The translations under genes and the position numbers were made by a program. Below are positions 1 through 32,054 of a DNA stretch of 32,705 bases, in pieces (the first letter of the stretch is position 1; each line of letters begins with the position of its first letter). The stretch is from a virus. The DNA lies in the IMG/VR virus record IMGVR_UViG_3300028365_000011, positions 1 to 32,705 of that record. One strand, given 5' to 3'. The notes beneath the pieces are model-generated. The model made no database searches. It worked only from the letters and a program-made list of their open reading frames with translations, and was not told the DNA's origin.

Positions 1-1053
1 ACGAGGGCCAAACTCACTACGACCATTAGCAACGCCGCATATGCCCGATCGAACGAGCTCCAAAAGAATTTTGTTAACAGGGTATGTTCCTTCTATGTTA
101 TATCCAAGGTATGGGCCGGGCCATTTGATTTTTTTCTTGTAATGGGCAAGAACTGCACCAATTGCACTGCCGCTGTCGCCTGGATTAGGCATAACCCAGA
201 CATTTTTAAAGTATTCATACGCAATAGAGTTGGCGCTGCAATTTAACGCACATCCTCCCATTAACACTAGATTATTGCTGGGCAGCTTGTTAGCAAATGT
301 GCCAAGTATGTGTCGTAATATATCTTCATACACAAGTTGCGTTGCGGCTGCAATGTCAAAGTAATCCTGTTCGCTGGTTAAATCAGGGCGCCAATCCTTG
401 CAGCCACGATGCAGATTTCTATTGAACTTGACCATAGGCTTGTTGCCAATTTCAACAAAGTCTTGTTTTACGTCATGATAAAGCCTGTTGCCGTCGCCGT
501 ATGCTGCCATGCCCATGAGTATGTATTCATCTTCTTGTGGCTTTAATCCAACACGCTGCGTCATTGCACTATACCACATACCCACGCTATGCGGGTATCG
601 TTGACTGTATACTTTCTTCATTCCGTGATGTGTTGCACTCCAAACAGTTAGAGTTTCAAACTCGCCAACACTGTCAATGCACACCACAGTGGCGTCAACG
701 AATCCGCTTGTGTTAAAACCAGCTGCGGCGTGACTACAGTGATGGTCTACATAGCTAATTTTAGCTGGCTTAATTTCAAACTGACACAAATACTCCTTGA
801 CGTTGTTTTCTTTTGCGTTCCAGCCCTGGCCTGCTAGAAGTTGCCGCATTGTTTTCTTGTATGGATTTTCATACCAGACTACATGTTCGGGTTTGCCAAA
901 CTGCATTGCATAATCGATCAAATCTGTGTGCAAATGCGGATCATTCTTTACTCGGCTAAATCTTTCACTCTGACTTGCAAACTTCAAGTTAATATTTTGG
1001 TCAAATACTGCCAGCGCAGCATCGTGACTGTTTGCACTAATACCCCAAATCAT
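1..1053 (-). CDS. Carbamoyltransferase, NodU/CmcH family (3' end outside window)
   Basis: The 351 codons seen here start MIWGISANSHDAAL, the usual opening of O-carbamoyltransferases that move a carbamoyl group from carbamoyl phosphate to a sugar or antibiotic hydroxyl. The metal-binding segment DHHCSHAAAGF lies near residues 117-127, followed by an ASKHA-type ATPase region with MGGCALNCSAN and PNPGDSGSAIGA. Full family members are usually above 500 residues, so the C-terminal third lies beyond position 1. The ATG at 1053-1051 overlaps the stop of the 29-aa ORF upstream by four bases (ATGA), which suggests coupled translation. Family members occur in marine T4-like phages; the substrate is unknown. 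A role in modifying a surface glycan or nucleotide sugar made by the carbohydrate genes at 10575-16818 is inference. Family call is firm. Confidence 0.93.
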   Translation of the reverse strand, partial: MIWGISANSHDAALAVFDQNINLKFASQSERFSRVKNDPHLHTDLIDYAMQFGKPEHVVWYENPYKKTMRQLLAGQGWNAKENNVKEYLCQFEIKPAKISYVDHHCSHAAAGFNTSGFVDATVVCIDSVGEFETLTVWSATHHGMKKVYSQRYPHSVGMWYSAMTQRVGLKPQEDEYILMGMAAYGDGNRLYHDVKQDFVEIGNKPMVKFNRNLHRGCKDWRPDLTSEQDYFDIAAATQLVYEDILRHILGTFANKLPSNNLVLMGGCALNCSANSIAYEYFKNVWVMPNPGDSGSAIGAVLAHYKKKIKWPGPYLGYNIEGTYPVNKILLELVRSGICGVANGRSEFGPR

Positions 1054-6582: not shown

Positions 6583-7422
6583 TTAATTCCAATCTATTTT
6601 TTCTATAGTATAAGGATATTGAGCTTCGGCGTAAAATTTCTTGCGAGCAGCAAGGTGCCGTTTGGCAAACTTACATGTGCTGGTGATATCCCATATTTGG
6701 ACAAAGTCTTTGTCCTTTGCTTTTCTTACGCCCCTGCCGATACTTTGAATGACTCTGACAAAACTCTTGCCGGGTTCAAAAAGCACCAAATTAAAGATTC
6801 TCGGAATATTAATACCAACTGCTGCAACACCATATGTTGCAATAATTACCATATCCGTAGCATCTTGCACTTTATCGTAAGTTTCTTTTCTGTTCTTTGT
6901 TTTAACCGCGCCGTTAATAAAGATAGAGCCCGGAATTAGTTCTTGTAGTTTTTGTCCAGCTGCAATTCGATCAACTAGGATTAATGTATTTCCTGAACTT
7001 TTTATCTTAATCATTAACTTACCAAGATATTCAAGGCGTGCTTCGTCTGACACAAGATACTTGAGTTCTTCTTGATAATTTGTAAATGCTTTGACATCCA
7101 TCAACTGACATATATTAACATGACAGTTTGACAATACGCCCTTGTCCTGTAGTTCTTTTGCTGTTACGTTGCCTACGACAGGACCAAGACTTGCAAGTAT
7201 GCTTTGAAATTCAAAGGCTTCTTTAGGAACAGTTCCTGTTAGACCCCAGCGGATTGGCGCATTCTTTAAGTTTTGTGTTAATATATTCTTTAGTACATCT
7301 GCCTTGGCTTGGTGACAGTTTGCCACTACAGCATCATTAGCAATGTAGTTGTGATCGTTCTTAACATGTAAGTTATAGACCTTGTCTGGTTTGTTTATAA
7401 CTGTCTTTTTAACTAATTTCAT
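6583..7422 (-). CDS. uvsW: UvsW helicase, C-terminal part with C-terminal half of a split intein
   Basis: 279 residues. Residues 1-35 are the C-terminal piece of an intein (YNLHVKNDHNYIANDAVVAN), ending in Asn and followed by Cys36, the +1 nucleophile. The remaining 244 residues are helicase: CHQAKADVLKNI completes the DECH box, LTGTVPKE is motif III, and IATYGVAAVGINIP and IQSIGRGVRKAKDK are motifs V and VI. UvsW is a RecG-like superfamily 2 helicase that remodels forks and R-loops and ends origin-dependent replication in T4. This part lacks the Walker A lysine, so it should be inactive until spliced to the product of 8331-9356. The start is the ATG after TAGGAAATTAT, and it overlaps the endonuclease stop by 14 bases. 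Confidence 0.9.
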   Translation of the reverse strand: MKLVKKTVINKPDKVYNLHVKNDHNYIANDAVVANCHQAKADVLKNILTQNLKNAPIRWGLTGTVPKEAFEFQSILASLGPVVGNVTAKELQDKGVLSNCHVNICQLMDVKAFTNYQEELKYLVSDEARLEYLGKLMIKIKSSGNTLILVDRIAAGQKLQELIPGSIFINGAVKTKNRKETYDKVQDATDMVIIATYGVAAVGINIPRIFNLVLFEPGKSFVRVIQSIGRGVRKAKDKDFVQIWDITSTCKFAKRHLAARKKFYAEAQYPYTIEKIDWN

Positions 7423-8317
7423 ATAATTTCCTAATTTTATTTTGTGTATTTTCATCAAAGTTGTCTAAGTTAGTAGGAAACTTTTTGTTAATAAAATATT
7501 CTTTATTTGCTATTATAACAGTATATCCGTTAGTTGTACACCATTCTTTTGCAGCATTAATCTTTGCTTTAGTTTTTTCGTCATACATTAGTTCTTCTGG
7601 TTTTACTTCTATTAATGTCTTTATATCATGATTTACAAAGTCAACAATATAAATATGTTCTTTATTATTATAGACATATGGAATTCTAATAGTTTCGTAT
7701 TCTGCATCTTTATCGAAGTATTGGTATAGTGCTTCCCAAGAACTTCTATATTTTTTATTTTTATAAAATGCATCCCAATGCGTATTTCTATTATTTGAGT
7801 TAGGAGTAAAAGTACCGTTTAATATTTTTTCTTTCATGATATTACTACGATGTAGTTTATCTTCTGCTGACATAACTGTTCCATACATGCCGTTTTTTGA
7901 ACCAATGTTAGCTTGACTAATTTTTTGCTTAGTTTCTGCTGTGACTGTTGTAGAATAAGGATAATTGCCTTTTGTCCCTTTATTCCAAGGAATGCCTGTA
8001 TTTAGATTTTCTTTTATCTTATCACCGTGTATTAGTTGACACGCGGCGCCGCCGATCTTTGAGGTAACTGCCCTTGCTGCTTTTTCAGCATCGACCCTGA
8101 TAGAAACGTCTATACTATATAGTCTGTCAAATGTATTCTTCCATACAGGATGGCCGGTCATTATCCTTCTTTTACATAAACGGATATCTCTTTCTGTAGT
8201 TAATGTTAATCCGTTAGATAACTTTATTTCATTTACTGATATGATTTCCGCAAATAGAGTTTGGTTTAAATTTTTTAGAATATTATTAAAATTAGTAATA
8301 TCAAATATCTTTGCCAT
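7409..8317 (-). CDS. Free-standing homing endonuclease in the uvsW break, gp4-like nuclease core
   Basis: 302 residues lying between the two halves of the uvsW split intein. Residues about 107-165 carry NUMOD3-type DNA-binding repeats (GIPWNKGTKG and TAETKQKISQANIG). The C-terminal nuclease core has RSSWE (E195), IRIPY, IYIVDF (D226), LIEVKP (E237, K239) and a closing AAKEWC block. These five elements appear in the same order in the phage head-completion nuclease gp4 encoded at 27798-28232, so the fold is of the PD-(D/E)XK type. It has its own late promoter (TATAAATA at 8342-8349) and a strong AAAGGAG ribosome site. Expected role: cleave intein-less uvsW alleles to spread the insertion. It is more AT-rich than the helicase genes beside it. 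Confidence 0.88.
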   Translation of the reverse strand: MAKIFDITNFNNILKNLNQTLFAEIISVNEIKLSNGLTLTTERDIRLCKRRIMTGHPVWKNTFDRLYSIDVSIRVDAEKAARAVTSKIGGAACQLIHGDKIKENLNTGIPWNKGTKGNYPYSTTVTAETKQKISQANIGSKNGMYGTVMSAEDKLHRSNIMKEKILNGTFTPNSNNRNTHWDAFYKNKKYRSSWEALYQYFDKDAEYETIRIPYVYNNKEHIYIVDFVNHDIKTLIEVKPEELMYDEKTKAKINAAKEWCTTNGYTVIIANKEYFINKKFPTNLDNFDENTQNKIRKLYEIS

Positions 8318-8330
8318 AAATACTTCTCCT

Positions 8331-9356
8331 TTAGTTGTATGTATTTATATCAATAACATCTAACTCATCAGTTAATAGATCTGCTCTAACCCATCCTTTG
8401 TTGGTTAAAAATTTATGGTTAGCTGTGACTTTAGTAATACTACCGTTATTAAACTCCAACTCTAGCATATCCTCAGAGCTACTGTTGGGTAGATTTTTGT
8501 GTACTTTAACAATAACGTCTTCTTTGTACGTGTTTGTTTTTTCGCATAGATTAATTACTGCGTCTCCAACTCTTAGGTTTTTAATAGCAATCTTTCCTGT
8601 TGGTGTAGTAATTAAGGTGTCGCCGTCAAGACACTCGTCTACTATAACAGTAGTCACACCTTCTAAAAATTCTGCCAAGCTGAGAACTAAAAGTCCTTCT
8701 TTGTTACGCTTGTTGAGTATGTTGAGACTTTGCCAAGTACAGATTGTGTGTGTTTTACCTAGTTCTTTTCTGTCTCCAAAGTAAACGCCTACATCTAATC
8801 CACAGTTGATATAATCCTCTTCTGTTTGCTCAACTAGACTTTTGTTAGGAACAATAATTAAACTCCTGCCGAACACTTCGCACATCTTAGATAATGTTGC
8901 TGTGATAATTGTTTTGCCTGCGCCAGTTGCAATTTGCTGCAAGCTTTGCGGATTTTGTATAAAGTTGTTGATTGCTTCGACTTGATAGTCTCGTAGTATA
9001 ATAGGGTCGCCCTCAGCAGGATGACCTTTTGGCCAAACTGTGGTGCCCCAGTAGTTGGCATCAATGGTTTGAAAATTTAATTCAATCGTTGTTCTCTTGT
9101 CAACAATCTCTGAAATGTTTATCTTATTCTTTTCAAGTATTGGTAATAATACGTCTAAATGGCTTAGATATCCTGCGCCACCTATGCCAAAAAAGCCGAC
9201 TTTGCCGTCCCAGCGACCCAATTTAAATTGCGGCATATGCTTTGCATACGGTACTTCAAATTTTAATGCGTTGGAGAGTTGTCTCCGTACGGCTACTGAC
9301 AATCCTTCAAACTTTATATTTACTTCGTCTTCGATTATTAATTTACATAAACCCAT
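8331..9356 (-). CDS. uvsW: UvsW helicase, N-terminal part with N-terminal half of a split intein
   Basis: 341 residues. Residues 1-241 are the helicase N-terminus: a small N-terminal domain, the LRDYQVEAI Q-type motif near 121, the Walker A motif ATGAGKT (143-149), and VIVDE at the end. Cys242 starts an intein (CLDGDTLITTPTGK) of 100 residues that includes block B, TANHKF, and then stops. The break is therefore inside the DECH box, between VDE and CHQ. Splicing with 6583-7422 would give a helicase of about 485 residues, close to T4 UvsW (503). The start at 9356 is one base after the upstream stop (TAA T ATG); the longer frame to 9383 lies inside the neighbour. The intein N-part has the canonical split length. 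Confidence 0.92.
   Translation of the reverse strand: MGLCKLIIEDEVNIKFEGLSVAVRRQLSNALKFEVPYAKHMPQFKLGRWDGKVGFFGIGGAGYLSHLDVLLPILEKNKINISEIVDKRTTIELNFQTIDANYWGTTVWPKGHPAEGDPIILRDYQVEAINNFIQNPQSLQQIATGAGKTIITATLSKMCEVFGRSLIIVPNKSLVEQTEEDYINCGLDVGVYFGDRKELGKTHTICTWQSLNILNKRNKEGLLVLSLAEFLEGVTTVIVDECLDGDTLITTPTGKIAIKNLRVGDAVINLCEKTNTYKEDVIVKVHKNLPNSSSEDMLELEFNNGSITKVTANHKFLTNKGWVRADLLTDELDVIDINTYN
8342..8349 (-). promoter_or_regulatory. Late promoter TATAAATA of the uvsW-break endonuclease
   Basis: Perfect late octamer lying inside the last codons of the UvsW intein N-part. The predicted leader is about 18 bases and contains AAAGGAG. Confidence 0.65.
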
Positions 9357-9357
9357 A

Positions 9358-10557
9358 TTATCTTTTTCTGTTCTTTGAATCACTGTCTTTGACTAGCTGT
9401 ATTACTAAATCAGAGTGGTCTGTACTGTACGCATCAACATGTGTATTCATTATCGATTGGTTTGATAAATTTAATGTACAGGCTGGCTTCCACTTGCTAT
9501 TGAGCAACACTTTTGGAAGCTTGTTATTATTAATGTACACTATTTTTGTAGTTTCGTCAACCCAGTTGTTGAGAGCTTGCTCGCGTATATAGTCATTAAC
9601 AGTGGGGCCTGGAGTTGATGTTACTCGGAACAGAGCAGATTGCTGCTGGCTGGCAATGTTTGAAAATGCACCATGCACTGAAGAAACTTGATCAAGTGCA
9701 TGTTGTTTGTTAACTATAACCAACATTGGAAATCGATCCAATGTTGTAAGGGCAGCAGCTATATCATTCATGCTATTTGACTCGCAAGTCATGCTCATAA
9801 TTGGGCAATCTCTGCTAAGGATTTCTGAAATTATTCCTTCAGGAACTTCAATGTCAACATGCCCTAGCCCGTATTTAAATCTTCGGTCATAGAGCTTGAT
9901 ATTGCGATTAATGTCAGTAATGTCAATTTCTTGTGTGATCAATTCAACTGCTGCCGATCTTAGATTTAACATTTTGTTGTTGTAAATCCCAGGCACATAA
10001 GCAGACTTATTAGCAGTTATATCTGCAATCTCTTGTGCCATTGCAATGAGTGTGTTATCGATGTTAAAATTCCTATCTCTAAAGGTGTCTACTACAGTTG
10101 TAACACTCGACTCTGTTAGGGCAAAATAATGCGATTTATCGCCCTTTTTATGAAAGTAGCTGGTTGTTCCGTGTTTTCTAATAGCTTCGACTGCTGCAAT
10201 GATTTTTTTGTTAAAAGGAAACGTTATCTTGATCCACCGTGCATGTTGACTATTATTTGTTAAGATTGATGACTCGTTGCCATCTGATTTTTCAATTACG
10301 GTTATAGTTTTTGATCTATCAATGTAACGCAGAGGTTTACCGGTTGTGGACATTGCCATTGTTAAGTCTGTGATTCCCAAGGCAAGTAATTCATCTTGAT
10401 AATTAACCAACTTTTCCTTGGCTAGTTCGTACTGGCGGTCAGTTAGAGAAACGTTTCTCAATAACTGCGAACGTAAGCTCTTTAAGACTGGATTATCAGC
10501 CGGAGAGAGCTCGACCTCATTAATTTTAAAAATTACGTCTTCGATTGTTTGTGTCAT
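9358..10557 (-). CDS. Conserved hypothetical protein upstream of uvsW
   Basis: 399 residues, not assigned. The N-terminal 60 residues contain LRNVSLTDRQYELAKEKLVNY, a pattern I recall from unnamed proteins in marine T4-like phages. The middle has WIKITFPFNKKIIAAVEAI, and the last third has FPMLVIVNKQHALDQVSS and TKIVYINNNKLPKVLL, which alternate strands and helices like a helicase-type RecA fold. I find no Walker A motif, so ATPase activity is unlikely. It ends one base before uvsW and is probably co-transcribed with it. A sigma70-like promoter lies directly before its ATG, suggesting early expression. A role in recombination or repair with UvsW is inference from position. Confidence 0.68.
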   Translation of the reverse strand: MTQTIEDVIFKINEVELSPADNPVLKSLRSQLLRNVSLTDRQYELAKEKLVNYQDELLALGITDLTMAMSTTGKPLRYIDRSKTITVIEKSDGNESSILTNNSQHARWIKITFPFNKKIIAAVEAIRKHGTTSYFHKKGDKSHYFALTESSVTTVVDTFRDRNFNIDNTLIAMAQEIADITANKSAYVPGIYNNKMLNLRSAAVELITQEIDITDINRNIKLYDRRFKYGLGHVDIEVPEGIISEILSRDCPIMSMTCESNSMNDIAAALTTLDRFPMLVIVNKQHALDQVSSVHGAFSNIASQQQSALFRVTSTPGPTVNDYIREQALNNWVDETTKIVYINNNKLPKVLLNSKWKPACTLNLSNQSIMNTHVDAYSTDHSDLVIQLVKDSDSKNRKR

Positions 10558-16830: not shown

Positions 16831-17281
16831 TTGCTGCGTCGTCTAGGCCAGCAACTCTTAGTCTAATTATATTATTAATAGAAAACCCTTTTGAATCAAG
16901 TCCTTTTAGTACGCCCAGCCATTTGTTTCGTAGTAGTGCAAACTCATTGATTAATTGTTCGTAATCGCAGACTGCTGTCTCGCCGTCTACATACTTTTCA
17001 CAATCGCGACTGGATAATGCACGCTGATAATTTTCTAAATATTTTCTAAAAAACGAGCTACGCAACTTACGTAATTCGATATTTAGATATTCCAGTATTG
17101 CCTCAAGTTCTTGAAGTTGATTAAATCGTTGTTCAACAATTCCAGGCATCATTGCTGCTGCTTTTTCAATACTACCCTTAATCTGAGTTTCAAAGCGAGC
17201 TGTTGCCAGCTCGCTTTCAAAGTATTGTATAGCATTTGGAATTTCAGTAATGTCATTAGTGACTTTGCTGTACCATCCCAT
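16826..17281 (-). CDS. uvsY: UvsY recombination mediator
   Basis: 151 residues, mostly helical. In T4, UvsY loads the UvsX recombinase onto gp32-coated single-stranded DNA. The middle has RSSFFRKYLENYQRALSSRD and EKYVDGE, and the end has LRNKWLGVLKGLDSKGFSINNIIRLRVAGL, which match the UvsY core and its closing helix as I know them from marine T4-like phages. The start follows the stop of the acidic 75-aa gene by two bases. Its own stop codon lies within the late promoter octamer of the next gene. The partner proteins UvsX and gp32 are encoded immediately upstream, so the whole recombination set is clustered. Confidence 0.9.
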   Translation of the reverse strand: MGWYSKVTNDITEIPNAIQYFESELATARFETQIKGSIEKAAAMMPGIVEQRFNQLQELEAILEYLNIELRKLRSSFFRKYLENYQRALSSRDCEKYVDGETAVCDYEQLINEFALLRNKWLGVLKGLDSKGFSINNIIRLRVAGLDDAAI

Positions 17282-21264: not shown

Positions 21265-21272
21265 TATTTATC
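21265..21272 (-). promoter_or_regulatory. Late promoter GATAAATA, start at ATG
   Basis: Overlaps the stop of the terminase C-terminal gene and ends five bases before the ATG at 21259. It supports that ATG over the TTG at 21274, which lies upstream of and partly inside the octamer. Confidence 0.55.
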
Positions 21273-22371
21273 AAAAGCTACTGCTGACAAAGATAGGCAT
21301 CGGCTGCTCATAATCTTCGTCGGGTTCAAGATGAATAAAGGTATTATAAATCGAAGGATCCCAATCTTTGATCACAGTAATCATTCGCAGAGCAAGCAAC
21401 GTAGCGCTAACCAAATCGTCGCCGTGTCCTTGCTTTGCTTGAAAACTGGTATTCGACTTTACATAATTTTTTAATTCGGATATAAGCGGTCTGCTTCGCA
21501 ACAACAGTTGATCGTTTTCAATCATTGTTTTTAATCTTGCGCAGATGGTCATTTTTGCGCCATGTGTGGTGTTAAATCCTTTACGAAACTTTCTTACATG
21601 ACCTTTTCTCATGGGTTCACTGATAAACAATCCTGGTATATTTTCTTCGCCATAATCGTTGATTACAATCAGTGCTGCTTCGCCCAATCCATTGTTCTCG
21701 ACGCTCCAGTATATGTTGTCGCCACCGCTCTTGGTTTCGTCAGCAATGTATTGGCAGATATCTTTTAATACACGAACCTGGCCAGGGATTCCGGTTTCGT
21801 TGTGACACCATTCCCCAACTTGTTCATACGTAGGAATTTCATATATTTGTAATGCTGCGTTGTTGCCGCCTGTGCCCATAGCAGGATCTAGTGACACCAC
21901 ATAACTGTATTTCGAGCTTGGCTTTTTGAACCAACGAGTATGACCCATATTTAATAGAGGCGCTTCGCCTTCCATTGTAGCAAGTTTGATCGAATGTATT
22001 AGCGTCTCGTCGAACACAAGGAATTCACAGTTCGAGCTGAGTATTTTGTTTGTATAATATCGGTGGCCGCCATTGACTTCTATAAGATCATAAACCGGTT
22101 CTGAATAACCTAGATCTATTTTGTTGAGTAATTTTATATCGCCTTCGGTTGTAACCACTGTGTTTCCTATTGCAATGTCCTGGGCTTGTTTTGAAGTTTC
22201 CGGGCCTATGTAAAATTTGTGATCGTGGGTGCATTCAACATATGCGCCTTGTTCAAACTCCATTCGGAGCAACGGTTTTATTCCCATCATGCTAACACCG
22301 GCAAAGTCTTGAAACCCTTCCGGTGTTAGCACCTTGTACCCCTTGATGTTCTCTTTAAAAGTCTTTGTCAT
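21271..22371 (-). CDS. gp17: Terminase large subunit gp17, C-terminal part with C-terminal piece of split intein 2
   Basis: 366 residues. Residues 1-114 are intein: block B is ECTHDHKFYI (T48 to H51) and the end is VNGGHRYYTNKILSSN, with terminal Asn114 and +1 Cys115; the penultimate residue is Ser, not the usual His. The remaining 252 residues are the nuclease domain of the packaging motor, with VSLDPAMGTGG, WSVENNGLGEAA and GHGDDLVSATL holding the three acidic catalytic positions of T4 gp17. It cuts concatemer DNA at start and end of packaging. Without splicing it lacks the ATPase domain. The late promoter AATAAATA and AGGA ribosome site lie in the 3' end of the preceding endonuclease region. 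Confidence 0.92.
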   Translation of the reverse strand: MTKTFKENIKGYKVLTPEGFQDFAGVSMMGIKPLLRMEFEQGAYVECTHDHKFYIGPETSKQAQDIAIGNTVVTTEGDIKLLNKIDLGYSEPVYDLIEVNGGHRYYTNKILSSNCEFLVFDETLIHSIKLATMEGEAPLLNMGHTRWFKKPSSKYSYVVSLDPAMGTGGNNAALQIYEIPTYEQVGEWCHNETGIPGQVRVLKDICQYIADETKSGGDNIYWSVENNGLGEAALIVINDYGEENIPGLFISEPMRKGHVRKFRKGFNTTHGAKMTICARLKTMIENDQLLLRSRPLISELKNYVKSNTSFQAKQGHGDDLVSATLLALRMITVIKDWDPSIYNTFIHLEPDEDYEQPMPIFVSSSF

Positions 22372-22388
22372 TTAGTGTCCTATACGAA

Positions 22389-22396
22389 TATTTATT
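22389..22396 (-). promoter_or_regulatory. Late promoter AATAAATA of the terminase C-terminal gene
   Basis: Octamer with one mismatch. The predicted leader is about 12 bases, with AGGA, before the ATG at 22371. Confidence 0.5.
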
Positions 22397-22431
22397 CTCA
22401 AATATCCAAACTTCGTAGTCATACCCTCTGT

Positions 22432-23382
22432 CTACAACAGCTTGGCGTTTTTTAAGGTTGTTAACCAATCTATTCTTATACTTTTCCTTGCCATGGCCGT
22501 TCCACCACCATTGACTCTTGACTCTTGACTCTTGACTTCGATAATTTTATTTTCTTTAGGAATGAAGATATCGGGGTAATATTTTAAGTGATGTCTATTT
22601 TCAGCAACGTACTTAAATACCTCGATAGCGTAGTCTGAATAATCGTCGTGTATAATTATGTCATCTTCGCTGTATTTCAGCTGGTTAAATAATATATCCA
22701 AAGCAAAAGGTTCATGACCGCGTACACCTACAACCTTGCCGCCTGGCATTGTATAGTCTTTTATTGTACAGTTGCCTTTGTTGATCTTGCTAGCTGTTGT
22801 TCCTGACAATAGTACGTTTTCGACACCGTATCTTTCTAAGTTAGTAGCCCGCCTTTGTTGGTTGCTCTTATTCTTTTCTTCAATAGAACGGTTTACTCTA
22901 CTTAAACTAGCCTGCTTGCTGTTGTTGTATTTTTCGTCGCCATATTTTACTAGCTTGGTCTGTCTTGACTTTTCTTTTTGGCTCTCCAACTTTGATCCCC
23001 ACGCAACTCCGTACTTCTTTTTAAACGTAGCTTGCGCTTTGTTAAGTTGTTTTTCTTTTTGTGCATCTGTTCGCAATGCTGCTGCCTTCTTTTTGTTAGC
23101 GGAATCAATTTGTTTTTTGGTTGCAGTCCACTGTGACTTTGTAGTCGACCCACTTACTCCTACGCACTTAGGATCCCCGCAACTGTTGGCATAAGTTTCT
23201 TTGTGTTGATAAAATGAAAGTTTCTCTCCGCATATACACCTAGGACTTGTTCCAGTTGTATACTTTTCGTAGTAATCTCGATACGTTAAGTTATGTGTTT
23301 TTAAATGTCGCGTGAATTGACCATTGGTTTTGCAGTATGTCTTATTATCTAATCTTGATTCGACGTAAATTGCGACGCTCAC
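22432..23382 (-). CDS. Homing endonuclease in second terminase break, PD-(D/E)XK type, frameshifted at its C-terminus
   Basis: From a GTG at 23382 (ACGGAG six bases upstream) the frame gives 316 residues. The N-terminus has a Cys-rich finger region (C49, C51, C68, C73), and the middle has lysine-rich repeats with KKYGVAWGS and NLERYGVENVLL of the kind that bind DNA in phage endonucleases. GHEPFALDIL (E224), YYPDIFIP (D271) and IIEVKS (E282, K284) give the catalytic set. Right after EVKS a 7-bp repeat occurs nearly four times, and the frame becomes unlike a protein. In another frame the sequence continues as QWWWNGHGKEKYKNRL and NNLKKRQAVVDRGYDYEV and ends at 22355, the expected family ending. 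With two repeats, or five, the frame would be restored. Confidence 0.8.
   Translation of the reverse strand: MSVAIYVESRLDNKTYCKTNGQFTRHLKTHNLTYRDYYEKYTTGTSPRCICGEKLSFYQHKETYANSCGDPKCVGVSGSTTKSQWTATKKQIDSANKKKAAALRTDAQKEKQLNKAQATFKKKYGVAWGSKLESQKEKSRQTKLVKYGDEKYNNSKQASLSRVNRSIEEKNKSNQQRRATNLERYGVENVLLSGTTASKINKGNCTIKDYTMPGGKVVGVRGHEPFALDILFNQLKYSEDDIIIHDDYSDYAIEVFKYVAENRHHLKYYPDIFIPKENKIIEVKSQESRVNGGGTAMARKSIRIDWLTTLKNAKLL
22511..22537. repeat. 7-bp tandem repeat inside the second terminase endonuclease gene
   Basis: TTGACTC on the plus strand (AGTCAAG in the coding sense) is repeated 3.9 times. Each added copy shifts the reading frame by one. The copy number present puts the endonuclease C-terminus out of frame. 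Confidence 0.9.
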
Positions 23383-23412: not shown

Positions 23413-24150
23413 TTATTTATTAATGGTGCTAAACAGGTTGCCTATTTCTGAGTCAAATATATTACCGTGTATATCCTGGAGGGTGATGATTGTAGGTGCG
23501 CTCACACAACCATACTCGCGCCTGAATCGTTCTTCGCCAATTCGGCCAACCTCACCTTTTTTCCACTCTTCGTCTCTATCTGGGTGATCGTGCCACTCTG
23601 AGATAAAACTACGGAATCCATTGATGCCTAATTCTTGTTCAACGCCATATTCGTCAAATCTCTTTTCGGCATCTTTCCAAATAGTAGCAAATGTATCTTC
23701 ATCTGAGTTTGGTGTGCTTGTGATAATTGCGCGTCCACCAGTTGCTAGTGTAGGCGAAATTGATGCCCAAAATTCTTCAGCAATGTTTGGTTGCACAAAT
23801 GCGAATTCATCACATTGATGAGAGTTAATATTATTTGCAATTATTACATGATTTTCTGCATTAAATATTTCATAAGTGTCTTCTAAAACTACAGATGTTA
23901 GGTCTGCCACAGTTTTAATAGTATTGTGCGAATCTAACCTGTCACCTACAATTATATCATTTACTCTTGTTTCTACACCGTTAATAAAAAACCGGTGTTC
24001 TAACGTTGCAGTAACGAAAGTACCGTCGGTAAATGTTATTTTACAAGATTCTTTATTTGCATTTTCATTTAAGAAAATACCTTCAAATTCTTCCCACCCG
24101 TTAGGAGTTAATATTTCATATTCTGTATTAGGTGCGTATATTTGTTTCAT
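23413..24150 (-). CDS. gp17: Terminase large subunit gp17, middle part flanked by two split-intein pieces
   Basis: 245 residues in three segments. Residues 1-112 are the C-terminal piece of intein 1, with block B in VTATLEHRFF (T49 to H52) and the end NINSHQ, where the last residue is Gln, followed by +1 Cys113. Residues 113-214 are terminase: CDEFAFVQP completes Walker B, and ITSTPNS is the ATPase coupling motif III. Cys215 opens the N-terminal piece of intein 2 (CVSAPTIITLQDIHG), only 31 residues to the stop. So this product must be spliced at both ends. It has an AAAGGA ribosome site, and its start overlaps the HNH endonuclease stop by 23 bases. Confidence 0.92.
   Translation of the reverse strand: MKQIYAPNTEYEILTPNGWEEFEGIFLNENANKESCKITFTDGTFVTATLEHRFFINGVETRVNDIIVGDRLDSHNTIKTVADLTSVVLEDTYEIFNAENHVIIANNINSHQCDEFAFVQPNIAEEFWASISPTLATGGRAIITSTPNSDEDTFATIWKDAEKRFDEYGVEQELGINGFRSFISEWHDHPDRDEEWKKGEVGRIGEERFRREYGCVSAPTIITLQDIHGNIFDSEIGNLFSTINK
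23414..23421 (-). promoter_or_regulatory. Late promoter AATAAATA of the second terminase endonuclease
   Basis: Overlaps the stop of the terminase middle gene. The leader to the GTG at 23382 contains ACGGAG. Confidence 0.5.
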
Positions 24151-25024
24151 TGAATTCCTTTACTAACCTTGCTCCACTAACAGGTGCCGCATGCTGCATG
24201 TCGGTATTAATCATCTTAGCAAATACGTCAAACTCGTACAATGATTTATTAATAGTATAACTAGCGTTAGTTAACAACAAATCTATTGTAATACTGCACG
24301 CACTGTGCTTTGATATGTTTTCTTTCCACGGAAGCATTTGTAAGTTATGTATACTTCCGATAAGCAACGGACTAACACGGTTTTTGTATCCTTGCATAAT
24401 AGAAAATATATGGTCTATATGATGTGCACCTTCAACTCCGGCAAGTCCAGTTTTATAACCCGAGGTTATTGCTAGTCTATGCTGTTCAGTGACATACGTT
24501 ACAACTGACTTATACCGATAAAACTCATTACGCTGCGCCGGATCTAATATAAGACCCTTGGCTGCTTTTGTTGCGTTACCTTTAGTAATTGCAAGAGTTG
24601 CTAATTGCGAATAACCGTTACGGCCGAACTCGTCAACATTGCTCATATGCGTTGCTCTAGTTTTTTGGCCTTTTTTACTATATCCACTAATACCATCGGC
24701 GTCTAGCTTAGATAGCGTTTGTTGGGCAGCAACTTGCGATGTTTCGTAAGCAGTTAGCCCAGTAGCAGAGTCAACTGTACTAAGTCCTTTTTTGATGTTT
24801 GCTTTTCGTGCATTGCTAACTCCCCGAACTCCTGGGTGCAGTCTATCGTACTCTGCCACGCTCATATGTAACACTCGCTCAATGTACGATGTCTTGATCA
24901 TACTAAGACGTTCGTCACTTACAGGACATAATATATAATCTATGCCCGATTGTAATGACGATTCGTACAAATGCGCGTTACGCTTTTGGTTTCGTTTCTT
25001 AAATGCTTGTATTTTTATATCCAT
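24128..25024 (-). CDS. HNH homing endonuclease in the first terminase break
   Basis: 298 residues. The HNH nuclease lies near the C-terminus: GAHHIDHIFSIMQGY (H201, H202, D204, H205), then GSIHNLQMLPW (N227) and ENISKHSAC (N236, K239). This matches the HxIDH...N...N..K pattern of phage HNH homing enzymes. The N-terminal 180 residues are basic and contain repeats with GYSKKGQKTRATHM and GRNGYSQLATLAI, probably for DNA recognition. The start is the ATG at 25024: four bases upstream is a perfect late promoter octamer, and the longer frame to 25054 would overlap the terminase gene and the promoter. It lies between the two pieces of split intein 1, as expected for a homing cassette. Confidence 0.88.
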   Translation of the reverse strand: MDIKIQAFKKRNQKRNAHLYESSLQSGIDYILCPVSDERLSMIKTSYIERVLHMSVAEYDRLHPGVRGVSNARKANIKKGLSTVDSATGLTAYETSQVAAQQTLSKLDADGISGYSKKGQKTRATHMSNVDEFGRNGYSQLATLAITKGNATKAAKGLILDPAQRNEFYRYKSVVTYVTEQHRLAITSGYKTGLAGVEGAHHIDHIFSIMQGYKNRVSPLLIGSIHNLQMLPWKENISKHSACSITIDLLLTNASYTINKSLYEFDVFAKMINTDMQHAAPVSGARLVKEFNETNIRT

Positions 25025-25028
25025 GCAG

Positions 25029-25036
25029 TATTTATA
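25029..25036 (-). promoter_or_regulatory. Late promoter TATAAATA of the HNH endonuclease, start near ATG
   Basis: Perfect octamer four bases before the ATG at 25024, in the gap after the terminase N-terminal gene. Confidence 0.6.
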
Positions 25037-25050
25037 CAAATGCAAACTTA

Positions 25051-25692
25051 TCACCCGATAATTCTTTTAGGGTTGTGTGTCCTGATATACAAATCTCGAA
25101 GAGTTATATCTTCTTCAATAAGTGTATGCTTATTACGAACTCGGACAGTAGTTGTATCGCCATCTAAACAGTATAGTAGCGAGATAGCCAAACCACGTCC
25201 TGTAGTAGGTGTGGTTGTTTGACTGATAATACGCGAGCCGTTTTCAAATTCAATTGAGCCTTTGTTGTAACTGGTTACTCCGGCTCTAATGTGGTCAGGA
25301 CACAATTCGTAAACATACCGGATACGCTGCATAATTTCCTGTGCACCTGTGTATTTGTGTGCTGCAATCAAGATAGTCTGATCCGGCTTGAACATTGCAA
25401 ACCACGCAAGATAGATACTTGCACAAGTTGTCTTACCAGTTTGTCTAGGCATCATATTGATGTTGAATCGATAGTTGTGATACGTGTGCATCAATCCTAA
25501 CTGATAATCATACGGATCATACAACAGCTTTCCCTTAAGGGGATGCTGAATATATGCAAACATCTTAGCAAAGTAAAGATAGCCAACATCAGGATCCATG
25601 CACCCAACTAGTTGTTCAATTTGTTGTTCAGTGAATGTTTCCTGACGGTTGGCTTTCTTAATTAATACGCCGTCTAAGGTAGATGGTGCCAT
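25051..25692 (-). CDS. gp17: Terminase large subunit gp17, N-terminal part with N-terminal piece of split intein 1
   Basis: 213 residues. Residues 1-174 are the ATPase start: DPYDYQLGLMHTYHNY is the adenine-binding region, MPRQTGKTT (81-89) is Walker A, and TTGRGLAISLLY leads into Walker B. There Cys175 begins the intein (CLDGDTTTVRVRNKHT) and the gene stops 39 residues later with KRIIG. Joining to 23413-24150 gives LLY-CDEFAF, which restores Walker B. Adding the third part gives a terminase of about 528 residues, a normal length. T4 gp17 powers DNA packaging into the prohead with gp16. It starts three bases after the preceding stop. Confidence 0.93.
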   Translation of the reverse strand: MAPSTLDGVLIKKANRQETFTEQQIEQLVGCMDPDVGYLYFAKMFAYIQHPLKGKLLYDPYDYQLGLMHTYHNYRFNINMMPRQTGKTTCASIYLAWFAMFKPDQTILIAAHKYTGAQEIMQRIRYVYELCPDHIRAGVTSYNKGSIEFENGSRIISQTTTPTTGRGLAISLLYCLDGDTTTVRVRNKHTLIEEDITLRDLYIRTHNPKRIIG

Positions 25693-30473: not shown

Positions 30474-32054
30474 ATGATTAGGTGTAAAATTTGCTTGCAA
30501 GAGTTTTCAAGTATAATAACATGGAAGCATTTAAAATCTCACGGAATATCGACAATTGATTATAAAAAGAAATATGGAGAAGTAGCATCTCCAGAATATA
30601 AAGAGCTAAAAAAACTTCAAAATTCTGGAAAAAGAAATCCTAACTTTAACAATAAAATGTCATCAGAATCCAAAGATAAGATCTCTCAATCTAACAAAGG
30701 AAATATTCCACATAACAAGAACAAGTCAATGAGCCAGAAACAAAAAGAAATACTTTCTGCAAAAGCAGTTGAGCGTAATATTTATTGGCGAGAAACTGAC
30801 AGTCATCCTGTTAAAGGAACTTCACGATCTATGGAAACTAAAAATAAAATTAAAGAAAAGAGAGCAACGCAAGTTATATCCAAAGAACAAGCATTAAAGT
30901 CAATCGAAACTAAAATTAAAAATGGATACAACATTGCATTCTTTAAAGGAAAAACTCATTCAAGTGAATCAAAAGAAAAGATTTCCAATAGTTCCAAAAA
31001 AACAGCATTATTAAAAAAAAACAACAGTATCAAAGATGCATCTGCCAGGCTTGCTGACAACGGGTATACGTTAATTTCAGTTATAGACAACTTATTACAT
31101 ATTAAGTGTAATTTGTGTAATAACAAATTTACACGATCTCGACAATACGCTACTACAAGTAAGATTACTCAAGAAATGTGCAATGTTTGTTATCCGTTAC
31201 AGACCGGAACCAGTAATCAGGAAAAAGAATTAGCTGAGTTTTTATCAAAATATGTACAAATTGAAACCAACAATCGTTCGATCATATCTCCGAAAGAATT
31301 AGATATATTTATTCCTAATCATAGTTTAGCAATAGAATACAATGGTCTATACTGGCATAGTGAAGTATACAAAGACAACAAGTATCATTTAAATAAAAAA
31401 CTACAAGCCGAGGACAAAGGAGTTGATTTAATTCATATATTTGAAGATGAATGGGTCAACAATATAGATATTGTTAAATCAAGATTGTTAATGAGGCTAG
31501 GTAAAATTGAAAATAAAATTTATGCGAGAAAATGCATAATCAAAGAAATTGATGCATCTACAGCTAACACGTTTATAAAACAAAATCATATTCAAGGAGT
31601 AGGAAGATCAAATGTTAGAGTTGGATTGTACTATAACAGTCAACTTGTTAGTGTAATGACCTTTTTAAATGGAGACATTTCGAAGGGTATTAAAGGATGG
31701 GAGTTAAATAGATTTTGTTCTTTAATTAACACGCAAGTTACAGGCGCAGCTGGAAGATTGTTTAAATGGTTTATTAACAATTATGATCCCGAAACTGTAA
31801 TTAGTTTTAGTGATAGGAGGTGGGAAACATCTAGTAGTGTGTATAGTAAAATTGGATTTAAGTATGCTTCGACATCAGTTCCTAATTATTGGTATTTTTG
31901 TAACAATGAAAATCAAAGGTATCATAGATATTCGTTACGTAAGCCAACAGGTTCTATATTATCTGAAAGAGAATTAAGAGAATCGCAAGGCTACCTAAGA
32001 ATATACGATTGTGGTAGTAGTAAATGGATTTGGTCAAAGACAAAGGCGGCATAG
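30474..32054 (+). CDS. Free-standing homing endonuclease, EDxHD/Vsr-like, between gp19 and gp18
   Basis: 526 residues. An N-terminal finger (C4, C7, H19, H23) is followed by NUMOD3-like repeats (SSESKDKISQSNKGN and SSESKEKISNSSKK), a second Cys4 site (C212, C215, C236, C239), then a Vsr-like nuclease: ELDIFIPNHSLAIEYNGLYWHSE (D277, E288, H295) and LIHIFEDEW. The C-terminal 170 residues (RFCSLINTQVTGAAGRLFKWF, SFSDRRWETSSSVYSKIGFKY) look like an acetyltransferase-type or Mom-like accessory domain. A plus-strand late promoter and AAGGA site precede it. It is more AT-rich than its neighbours, and its stop codon lies in a hairpin loop. Confidence 0.88.
   Translation: MIRCKICLQEFSSIITWKHLKSHGISTIDYKKKYGEVASPEYKELKKLQNSGKRNPNFNNKMSSESKDKISQSNKGNIPHNKNKSMSQKQKEILSAKAVERNIYWRETDSHPVKGTSRSMETKNKIKEKRATQVISKEQALKSIETKIKNGYNIAFFKGKTHSSESKEKISNSSKKTALLKKNNSIKDASARLADNGYTLISVIDNLLHIKCNLCNNKFTRSRQYATTSKITQEMCNVCYPLQTGTSNQEKELAEFLSKYVQIETNNRSIISPKELDIFIPNHSLAIEYNGLYWHSEVYKDNKYHLNKKLQAEDKGVDLIHIFEDEWVNNIDIVKSRLLMRLGKIENKIYARKCIIKEIDASTANTFIKQNHIQGVGRSNVRVGLYYNSQLVSVMTFLNGDISKGIKGWELNRFCSLINTQVTGAAGRLFKWFINNYDPETVISFSDRRWETSSSVYSKIGFKYASTSVPNYWYFCNNENQRYHRYSLRKPTGSILSERELRESQGYLRIYDCGSSKWIWSKTKAA

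What the first reader, a model, noticed from the sequence alone, without database searches (positions are those of the whole stretch)
22355..23382. 7-bp tandem repeat switches an endonuclease gene out of frame
Directly after the catalytic EVKS, AGTCAAG occurs 3.9 times. The frame then becomes atypical and stops at 22432, while another frame continues as a family-like ending (QWWWNGHGKEKYKNRL, KKRQAVVDRGYDYEVWIF) to 22355. Two or five copies would restore one long protein. This is either a recent slippage knockout of a homing enzyme inside a working split-intein locus, or a phase-variable switch.
Basis: partly seen in the sequence, partly recalled or inferred. Interest (0 to 1): 0.78.

Follow-up and report, generated by a model that had tools for sequence, protein, structure and literature searches.

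The report
Slippage-broken phage homing endonuclease gene
A selfish DNA-cutting gene, lodged between the pieces of a virus's split DNA-packaging gene, has been knocked out of frame by extra copies of a 7-letter repeat, and related assemblies suggest that working and broken versions coexist in nature; this is a clear snapshot of a known kind of decay, not a demonstrated genetic switch.

Summary
In a T4-like phage contig, a 27-nt perfect array of AGTCAAG (3.86 copies, 22511-22537, minus strand) puts the endonuclease gene between two pieces of a split-intein terminase gene out of frame just after the catalytic E-x-K. The open frame stops at 22432; a family-like C-terminus continues in another frame to 22355. 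No homologue ends at 22432. About 20 distinct intact orthologues at the same site run EVK[S/A/G]xWWW without a gap, the length a two-copy allele would encode. Two near-identical contigs from other metagenomes carry the same four copies. Two more break exactly at the repeat, one ending after two copies and one starting with two copies. In a simulated assembly graph, only mixtures whose shortest allele has two copies give both ends. So an in-frame and an out-of-frame allele very probably coexist. At least five other lineages of this endonuclease are broken in other ways, and no other lineage has a repeat. Best reading: a recent slippage knockout in the ordinary decay of a homing endonuclease, still polymorphic and in principle reversible. 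Adaptive phase variation is not excluded but lacks support. Read-level copy counts would decide.

The parts
22511..22537 (-). Heptamer tandem repeat, (AGTCAAG)3.86, the frame-breaking lesion
22432..23382 (-). Truncated endonuclease ORF as it reads here (GTG start; 316 aa, last 30 off-frame), Pfam DUF7487
22355..22510 (-). Displaced C-terminal coding tail (WWWNGHGKEKYKNRL...YEVWIF...), last helix and strand of the nuclease fold; its stop overlaps the next ORF's start
25051..25692 (-). TerL N-terminal piece plus N-half of split intein 1 (CLDGDTTTVR...)
24128..25054 (-). Open HNH/endonuclease-VII-like ORF inside split intein 1
23413..24150 (-). C-half of split intein 1 (ends NSHQ|C), TerL middle piece, short N-half of split intein 2 (CVSAPTIITLQD...)
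21271..22371 (-). Long C-half of split intein 2 (ends SSN|C) plus TerL C-terminal piece; has its own AGGA ribosome-binding-site-like sequence

Best explanation
This is a free-standing PD-(D/E)XK homing-type endonuclease gene sitting between the two halves of an atypical split intein that fractures the phage terminase large subunit. In this lineage, slipped-strand mispairing during replication expanded a pre-existing two-copy heptamer (the codons for E-V-K-S-Q) to four copies. The 14 extra bases shift the frame right after the catalytic E-x-K strand, so the protein loses the last helix and strand of the nuclease core and is presumably dead. The terminase pieces and intein halves are open and unbroken, so terminase trans-splicing should still work and the phage survives. 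The intact two-copy allele most likely still circulates in the same populations. This is the decay phase of the homing cycle, caught early and with a lesion that can revert. Shown: the array, the frameshift, the intact orthologues, the conserved tail, the four-copy allele in three contigs, and other broken lineages. Inferred: slippage as the cause, loss of cutting activity, the two-copy allele (from contig ends) and terminase splicing.
For: Orthologues at the same terL site: in a survey of 78 sequences about 20 distinct members are open through EVKxxWWW...YEVWLF and overlap or abut the start of the IntC-TerL ORF. The nearest intact sister L057/L058 reads EVKSQWWWDGHGKEKYKNRLVNNLKKRQAV with no gap. 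dN/dS against it is about 0.13 upstream (0.19/1.46) and 0.14 in the shifted-frame tail (0.057/0.41), so the tail was selected as protein until recently. Four copies also occur in contigs 3300028370_000004 and 3300012263_000019. Contig 3300012272_000034 ends exactly at ...GAAGTCAAGAGTCAA and 3300035034_000156 starts exactly at AGTCAAGAGTCAATGG. Simulated graphs give both ends only when the shortest allele has two copies; four copies alone give no break at k>=31. Other broken lineages: L093 and L097 (small shifts at homopolymer runs), L068/L070/L071 (early TAA), L015 (deletion plus shift), L098/L099/L101 (truncations). AlphaFold model of an intact orthologue (pLDDT 87.8): strand 276-282 carries E279 and K281; helix 292-310 and strand 314-320, lost here, follow. 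Structural neighbours include Vsr, TnsA and the homing enzyme I-Bth0305I.
Against: No contig with an assembled two-copy repeat was found, so that allele rests on two contig ends. Contig ends also recur for other reasons: two assemblies share a break at window 16895. Slippage is inferred from the repeat, not observed. No activity of the enzyme was measured.
Confidence: 0.77

Rival explanations
1. Phase-variable switch: the heptamer array is kept because reversible slippage turns the endonuclease on and off, for example limiting its toxicity while keeping the option to home.
For: A heptamer is out of phase with codons and the two alleles probably coexist. A phage-borne precedent exists: neuO of phage CUS-3 switches by slippage of an AAGACTC heptamer (PMC13001214).
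Against: neuO carries 3-53 repeats, most often 20, in the 5' region of the gene; here there are 3.9, mid-gene, next to the active site. No other member of the family has an array. The rest of the genome sampled shows no similar frame-breaking array. Other family members are broken by lesions of other kinds.
Confidence: 0.08
2. Artefact: the four-copy state is an assembly or sequencing error and the gene is intact.
For: Two assemblies break at this point, so the region is hard to assemble.
Against: Three contigs from separate assemblies carry exactly the same four copies with near-identical flanks. A 27-nt array does not branch in graphs at k>=31, and short-read chemistry rarely adds 14 bases (own knowledge).
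Confidence: 0.06
3. Recoding: a programmed +1 shift, or transcriptional slippage, within the repeat makes full-length enzyme from the four-copy allele.
For: 0-frame and target frame overlap across the array, so a shift there would join them.
Against: No known slippery or stop-codon motif was seen by eye; intact orthologues need no shift; the product would carry about five extra residues after the catalytic strand. Recent DNA expansion explains the data more simply.
Confidence: 0.03
4. The four-copy product is a new, shorter functional protein (natural end at 22432).
For: The ORF is open to 22432 and the allele is found in three contigs.
Against: The 30-residue off-frame tail has no similarity to the family, and no homologue ends there; it lacks the last core helix and strand.
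Confidence: 0.03

Closest known systems
Fractured genes with split inteins and intervening homing endonucleases (Dassa et al. 2009, NAR 37:2560; cited in PMC3229294 and PMC10448857; the paper itself could not be read here)
   Same: Gene split into pieces joined by split inteins, with a free-standing endonuclease gene between the pieces
   Different: The Dassa enzymes are, from my own knowledge, Vsr-like EDxHD nucleases; this one keeps an E-x-K site and belongs to Pfam DUF7487, and here it is frameshifted
Atypical TerL split inteins (AceL-TerL, GOS-TerL, consensus Cat)
   Same: Terminase host gene, short N-half and long C-half; the C-half matches Cat at E 3.3e-10 (PMC11766414)
   Different: Not shown to splice here; a second split intein interrupts the same terL upstream
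Decaying phage homing endonuclease genes, e.g. in phage ICP1 (PMC10448857)
   Same: Frequent frameshifts, variable stops and deletions among close relatives
   Different: Here the lesion is a heptamer expansion, so reversion is possible in principle, and the locus is a split intein
neuO of prophage CUS-3 (phase variation by heptamer slippage, PMC13001214)
   Same: Phage gene, heptamer unit, frame set by copy number
   Different: Long 5' array with measured copy-number variation there; four copies in mid-gene, no evidence of repeated switching here

Membership tests
Pfam DUF7487 (PF24308) | Score above the curated cut-off | tested here: met
   Window 101.5 bits (cut-off 27), homologues 95.6-126.1 bits
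PD-(D/E)XK nuclease | Conserved D ... E-x-K active site | tested here: met
   YYPD (D268) and E279-x-K281 invariant in 20 intact members
PD-(D/E)XK nuclease | Characteristic core fold | tested here: inconclusive
   Model residues 205-335 align with Vsr (Z 7.8, rmsd 3.5, 102 aligned), TnsA (Z 7.7, 3.1, 106), I-Bth0305I (Z 6.6, 2.7, 79) and Hjc (Z about 5.9), but Foldseek gave nothing at E<=0.001 and such Z values are middling
EDxHD (Vsr-like) homing endonucleases | D-x-H in place of E-x-K (definition from own knowledge) | tested here: not met
   All 20 intact members keep E-x-K
Fractured gene with split intein and endonuclease | Host gene pieces carrying IntN and IntC halves around an endonuclease gene | tested here: met
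   Three TerL pieces cover contiguous parts of phrog_36964; IntN/IntC flank the endonuclease in the window and in relatives
Atypical TerL split intein | Cys1, terminal Asn, Cys+1, short IntN and long IntC, sequence similarity | tested here: met
   CVSAP... (31 aa) and 114-aa IntC ending SSN|C; Cat 3.3e-10. Splicing itself not tested
Homing endonuclease | Cuts the empty site and drives its own copying | not testable with these tools
   No biochemical data
Decaying homing endonuclease gene | Independent inactivating lesions among relatives while the host gene stays open | tested here: met
   At least five other lineages broken in different ways
Phase-variable contingency locus | Long repeat array conserved across the lineage | tested here: not met
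   3.9 copies, in this lineage only
Phase-variable contingency locus | Several copy-number alleles in one population | tested here: inconclusive
   Four copies seen; two-copy allele inferred from contig ends

The most novel reading that the evidence does not exclude
A phase-variable homing endonuclease: reversible slippage of the heptamer lets a phage population keep the endonuclease mostly off, avoiding its cost, while regenerating active copies that can home. That would be a way for a homing gene to escape the usual one-way decay.
Probability: 0.07. Interest if true: 0.75.

Novelty: new member of a known kind. Interest (0 to 1): 0.38.

Why it matters
Models of homing assume that an endonuclease, once broken, does not come back (PMC3229294 neglects the reverse step). 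This locus offers a naturally occurring, reversible lesion with both states probably present in the same waters, so the rate of loss and regain could be measured from existing reads. It also shows intact, newly broken and eroded versions of one endonuclease family at one terminase split-intein site; in sample 3300035034 alone intact (L005, L058), nonsense (L070) and repeat-broken or polymorphic (L045) lineages co-occur.

Tried and rejected
No match in isolated phage genomes and no sequence relative among solved structures for the endonuclease. The metagenome ids are not mentioned in the held papers, and the Dassa 2009 paper is not held. A search for the left flank hit one unrelated contig by chance (L043). 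The idea that a sister phage caused the contig breaks was rejected: L057/L058 lack AGTCAAGAGTCAA. The idea that the array alone breaks assemblies was rejected for k>=31. Similarity to the UvsW-locus endonuclease was not found. A copy-number hot spot across the family was looked for and not found.

Full report
What is in the sequence. The window is a 32,705-base virus contig of a T4-like phage. On the minus strand the terminase large subunit gene is in three pieces: 25051-25692, 23413-24150 and 21271-22371. They match successive parts of one terminase profile (phrog_36964: 432-522, 516-631, 626-862), and intein halves sit at both cuts. Each gap holds an endonuclease gene. The upstream one (24128-25054) is open. 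The downstream one (start GTG 23382, GGAG upstream) contains a perfect AGTCAAG array of 27 nt at 22511-22537, longer than any array of period 4-14 in 200 shuffles.

The frame is broken. In the 0-frame the protein reads IIEVKSQ and then 30 foreign residues, stopping at 22432. The family-like tail lies in another frame and ends at 22355. Against the tails of five intact homologues the displaced tail scores 178-207, while the 0-frame tail scores 18-27, as shuffles do. The displaced reading frame overlaps the start of the next terminase piece, an arrangement shared with relatives. That next piece has its own AGGA sequence, so its translation probably does not depend on the endonuclease.

Homologues. 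A scan with the window protein gave 39 loci, and one with an alignment of intact members gave 76. The close members whose flanks were read lie between the same terminase pieces. About 20 distinct sequences are intact. At the repeat position they read EVKSQWWW, EVKSRWWW, EVKARWWW or similar with no extra residues. So two heptamer copies, GAAGTCAAGAGTCAATGGTGG, is the ancestral length, and four copies is a gain of 14 bases. The nearest intact sister (L057, L058) is 72% identical in protein before the repeat and 86% after it, with dN/dS about 0.13-0.14 in both parts. The break is therefore recent.

Population evidence. Four near-identical contigs exist in other metagenomes. Two carry four copies. 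A third (3300012272_000034) is identical to the window over 10,181 bases and ends exactly after two copies. A fourth (3300035034_000156) starts exactly with two copies and shares two SNPs with the 151-kb four-copy contig. I simulated assembly-graph ends for mixtures of copy numbers. Only mixtures whose shortest allele is two copies give these two ends; four copies alone give no break for k of 31 or more, and 3+4 or 4+5 mixtures break elsewhere. If the five known contig ends in the region fell at random, two of them hitting both predicted bases would have a chance of roughly 1 in 10^8 (my estimate). Ends are not random, however: two assemblies also share an unexplained end at 16895. I take coexistence of an in-frame and an out-of-frame allele as very likely but not shown.

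What the enzyme is. It is Pfam DUF7487. A 20-sequence AlphaFold model of an intact orthologue (pLDDT 87.8) has a C-terminal domain whose structural neighbours are mostly nucleases of the PD-(D/E)XK kind, including Vsr, TnsA and homing endonuclease I-Bth0305I; the scores are moderate. The invariant D268, E279 and K281 fit a canonical active site. The frameshift removes the helix and strand that follow the E-x-K strand, so loss of activity is the natural inference.

Decay or switch. Other members of the family are broken in unrelated ways: small shifts at homopolymer runs (L093, L097), an early stop seen in three metagenomes (L068, L070, L071), a deletion plus shift (L015) and truncated remnants (L098/L099, L101). 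None has a tandem array. Frameshifts and deletions in phage homing genes are well known, for instance in ICP1 (PMC10448857). Known heptamer switching in the phage-borne neuO uses 3-53 repeats in the 5' region (PMC13001214). The simplest account is ordinary decay with an unusual, reversible first lesion. A maintained switch gets about 7-8%.

The inteins. The C-half of split intein 2 matches the consensus atypical intein Cat at 3.3e-10, placing it with the AceL-TerL/GOS-TerL group described in PMC11766414. The arrangement with an endonuclease between the halves is the known fractured-gene type. Nothing here is a new class of system. The value is the probable coexistence of working and broken alleles at a readable, reversible site.

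Noticed in passing
window 6583-9383 (-): The UvsW-type helicase gene is also fractured by a split intein, with an open TnsA-like/NUMOD3 endonuclease ORF (7409-8317) between the pieces.
   Followed up: partly
window 30474-32054 (+): A 526-aa free-standing homing endonuclease (phrog_3339) on the opposite strand to its neighbours, with a stretch matching Pfam Mom near its C-terminus.
   Followed up: no
window 16895: Two contigs from different metagenomes (3300028370_000004 and 3300035034_000156) both end at exactly this base; possibly strain variation or a genome end.
   Followed up: partly
L015 474-914: A related locus with the endonuclease largely deleted and an independent frame shift close to the same catalytic motif, while the intein halves remain.
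   Followed up: partly
L068, L070, L071: A relative with an early TAA stop in the endonuclease, seen in three metagenomes and otherwise open.
   Followed up: partly
L086 2456-5367: Two related endonuclease ORFs (341 and 596 aa) lie in tandem at one terminase split site.
   Followed up: no
window 1-1053 (-): A carbamoyltransferase-like ORF runs off the contig end; glycosyltransferase- and methyltransferase-like genes lie further in (judged by eye only).
   Followed up: no
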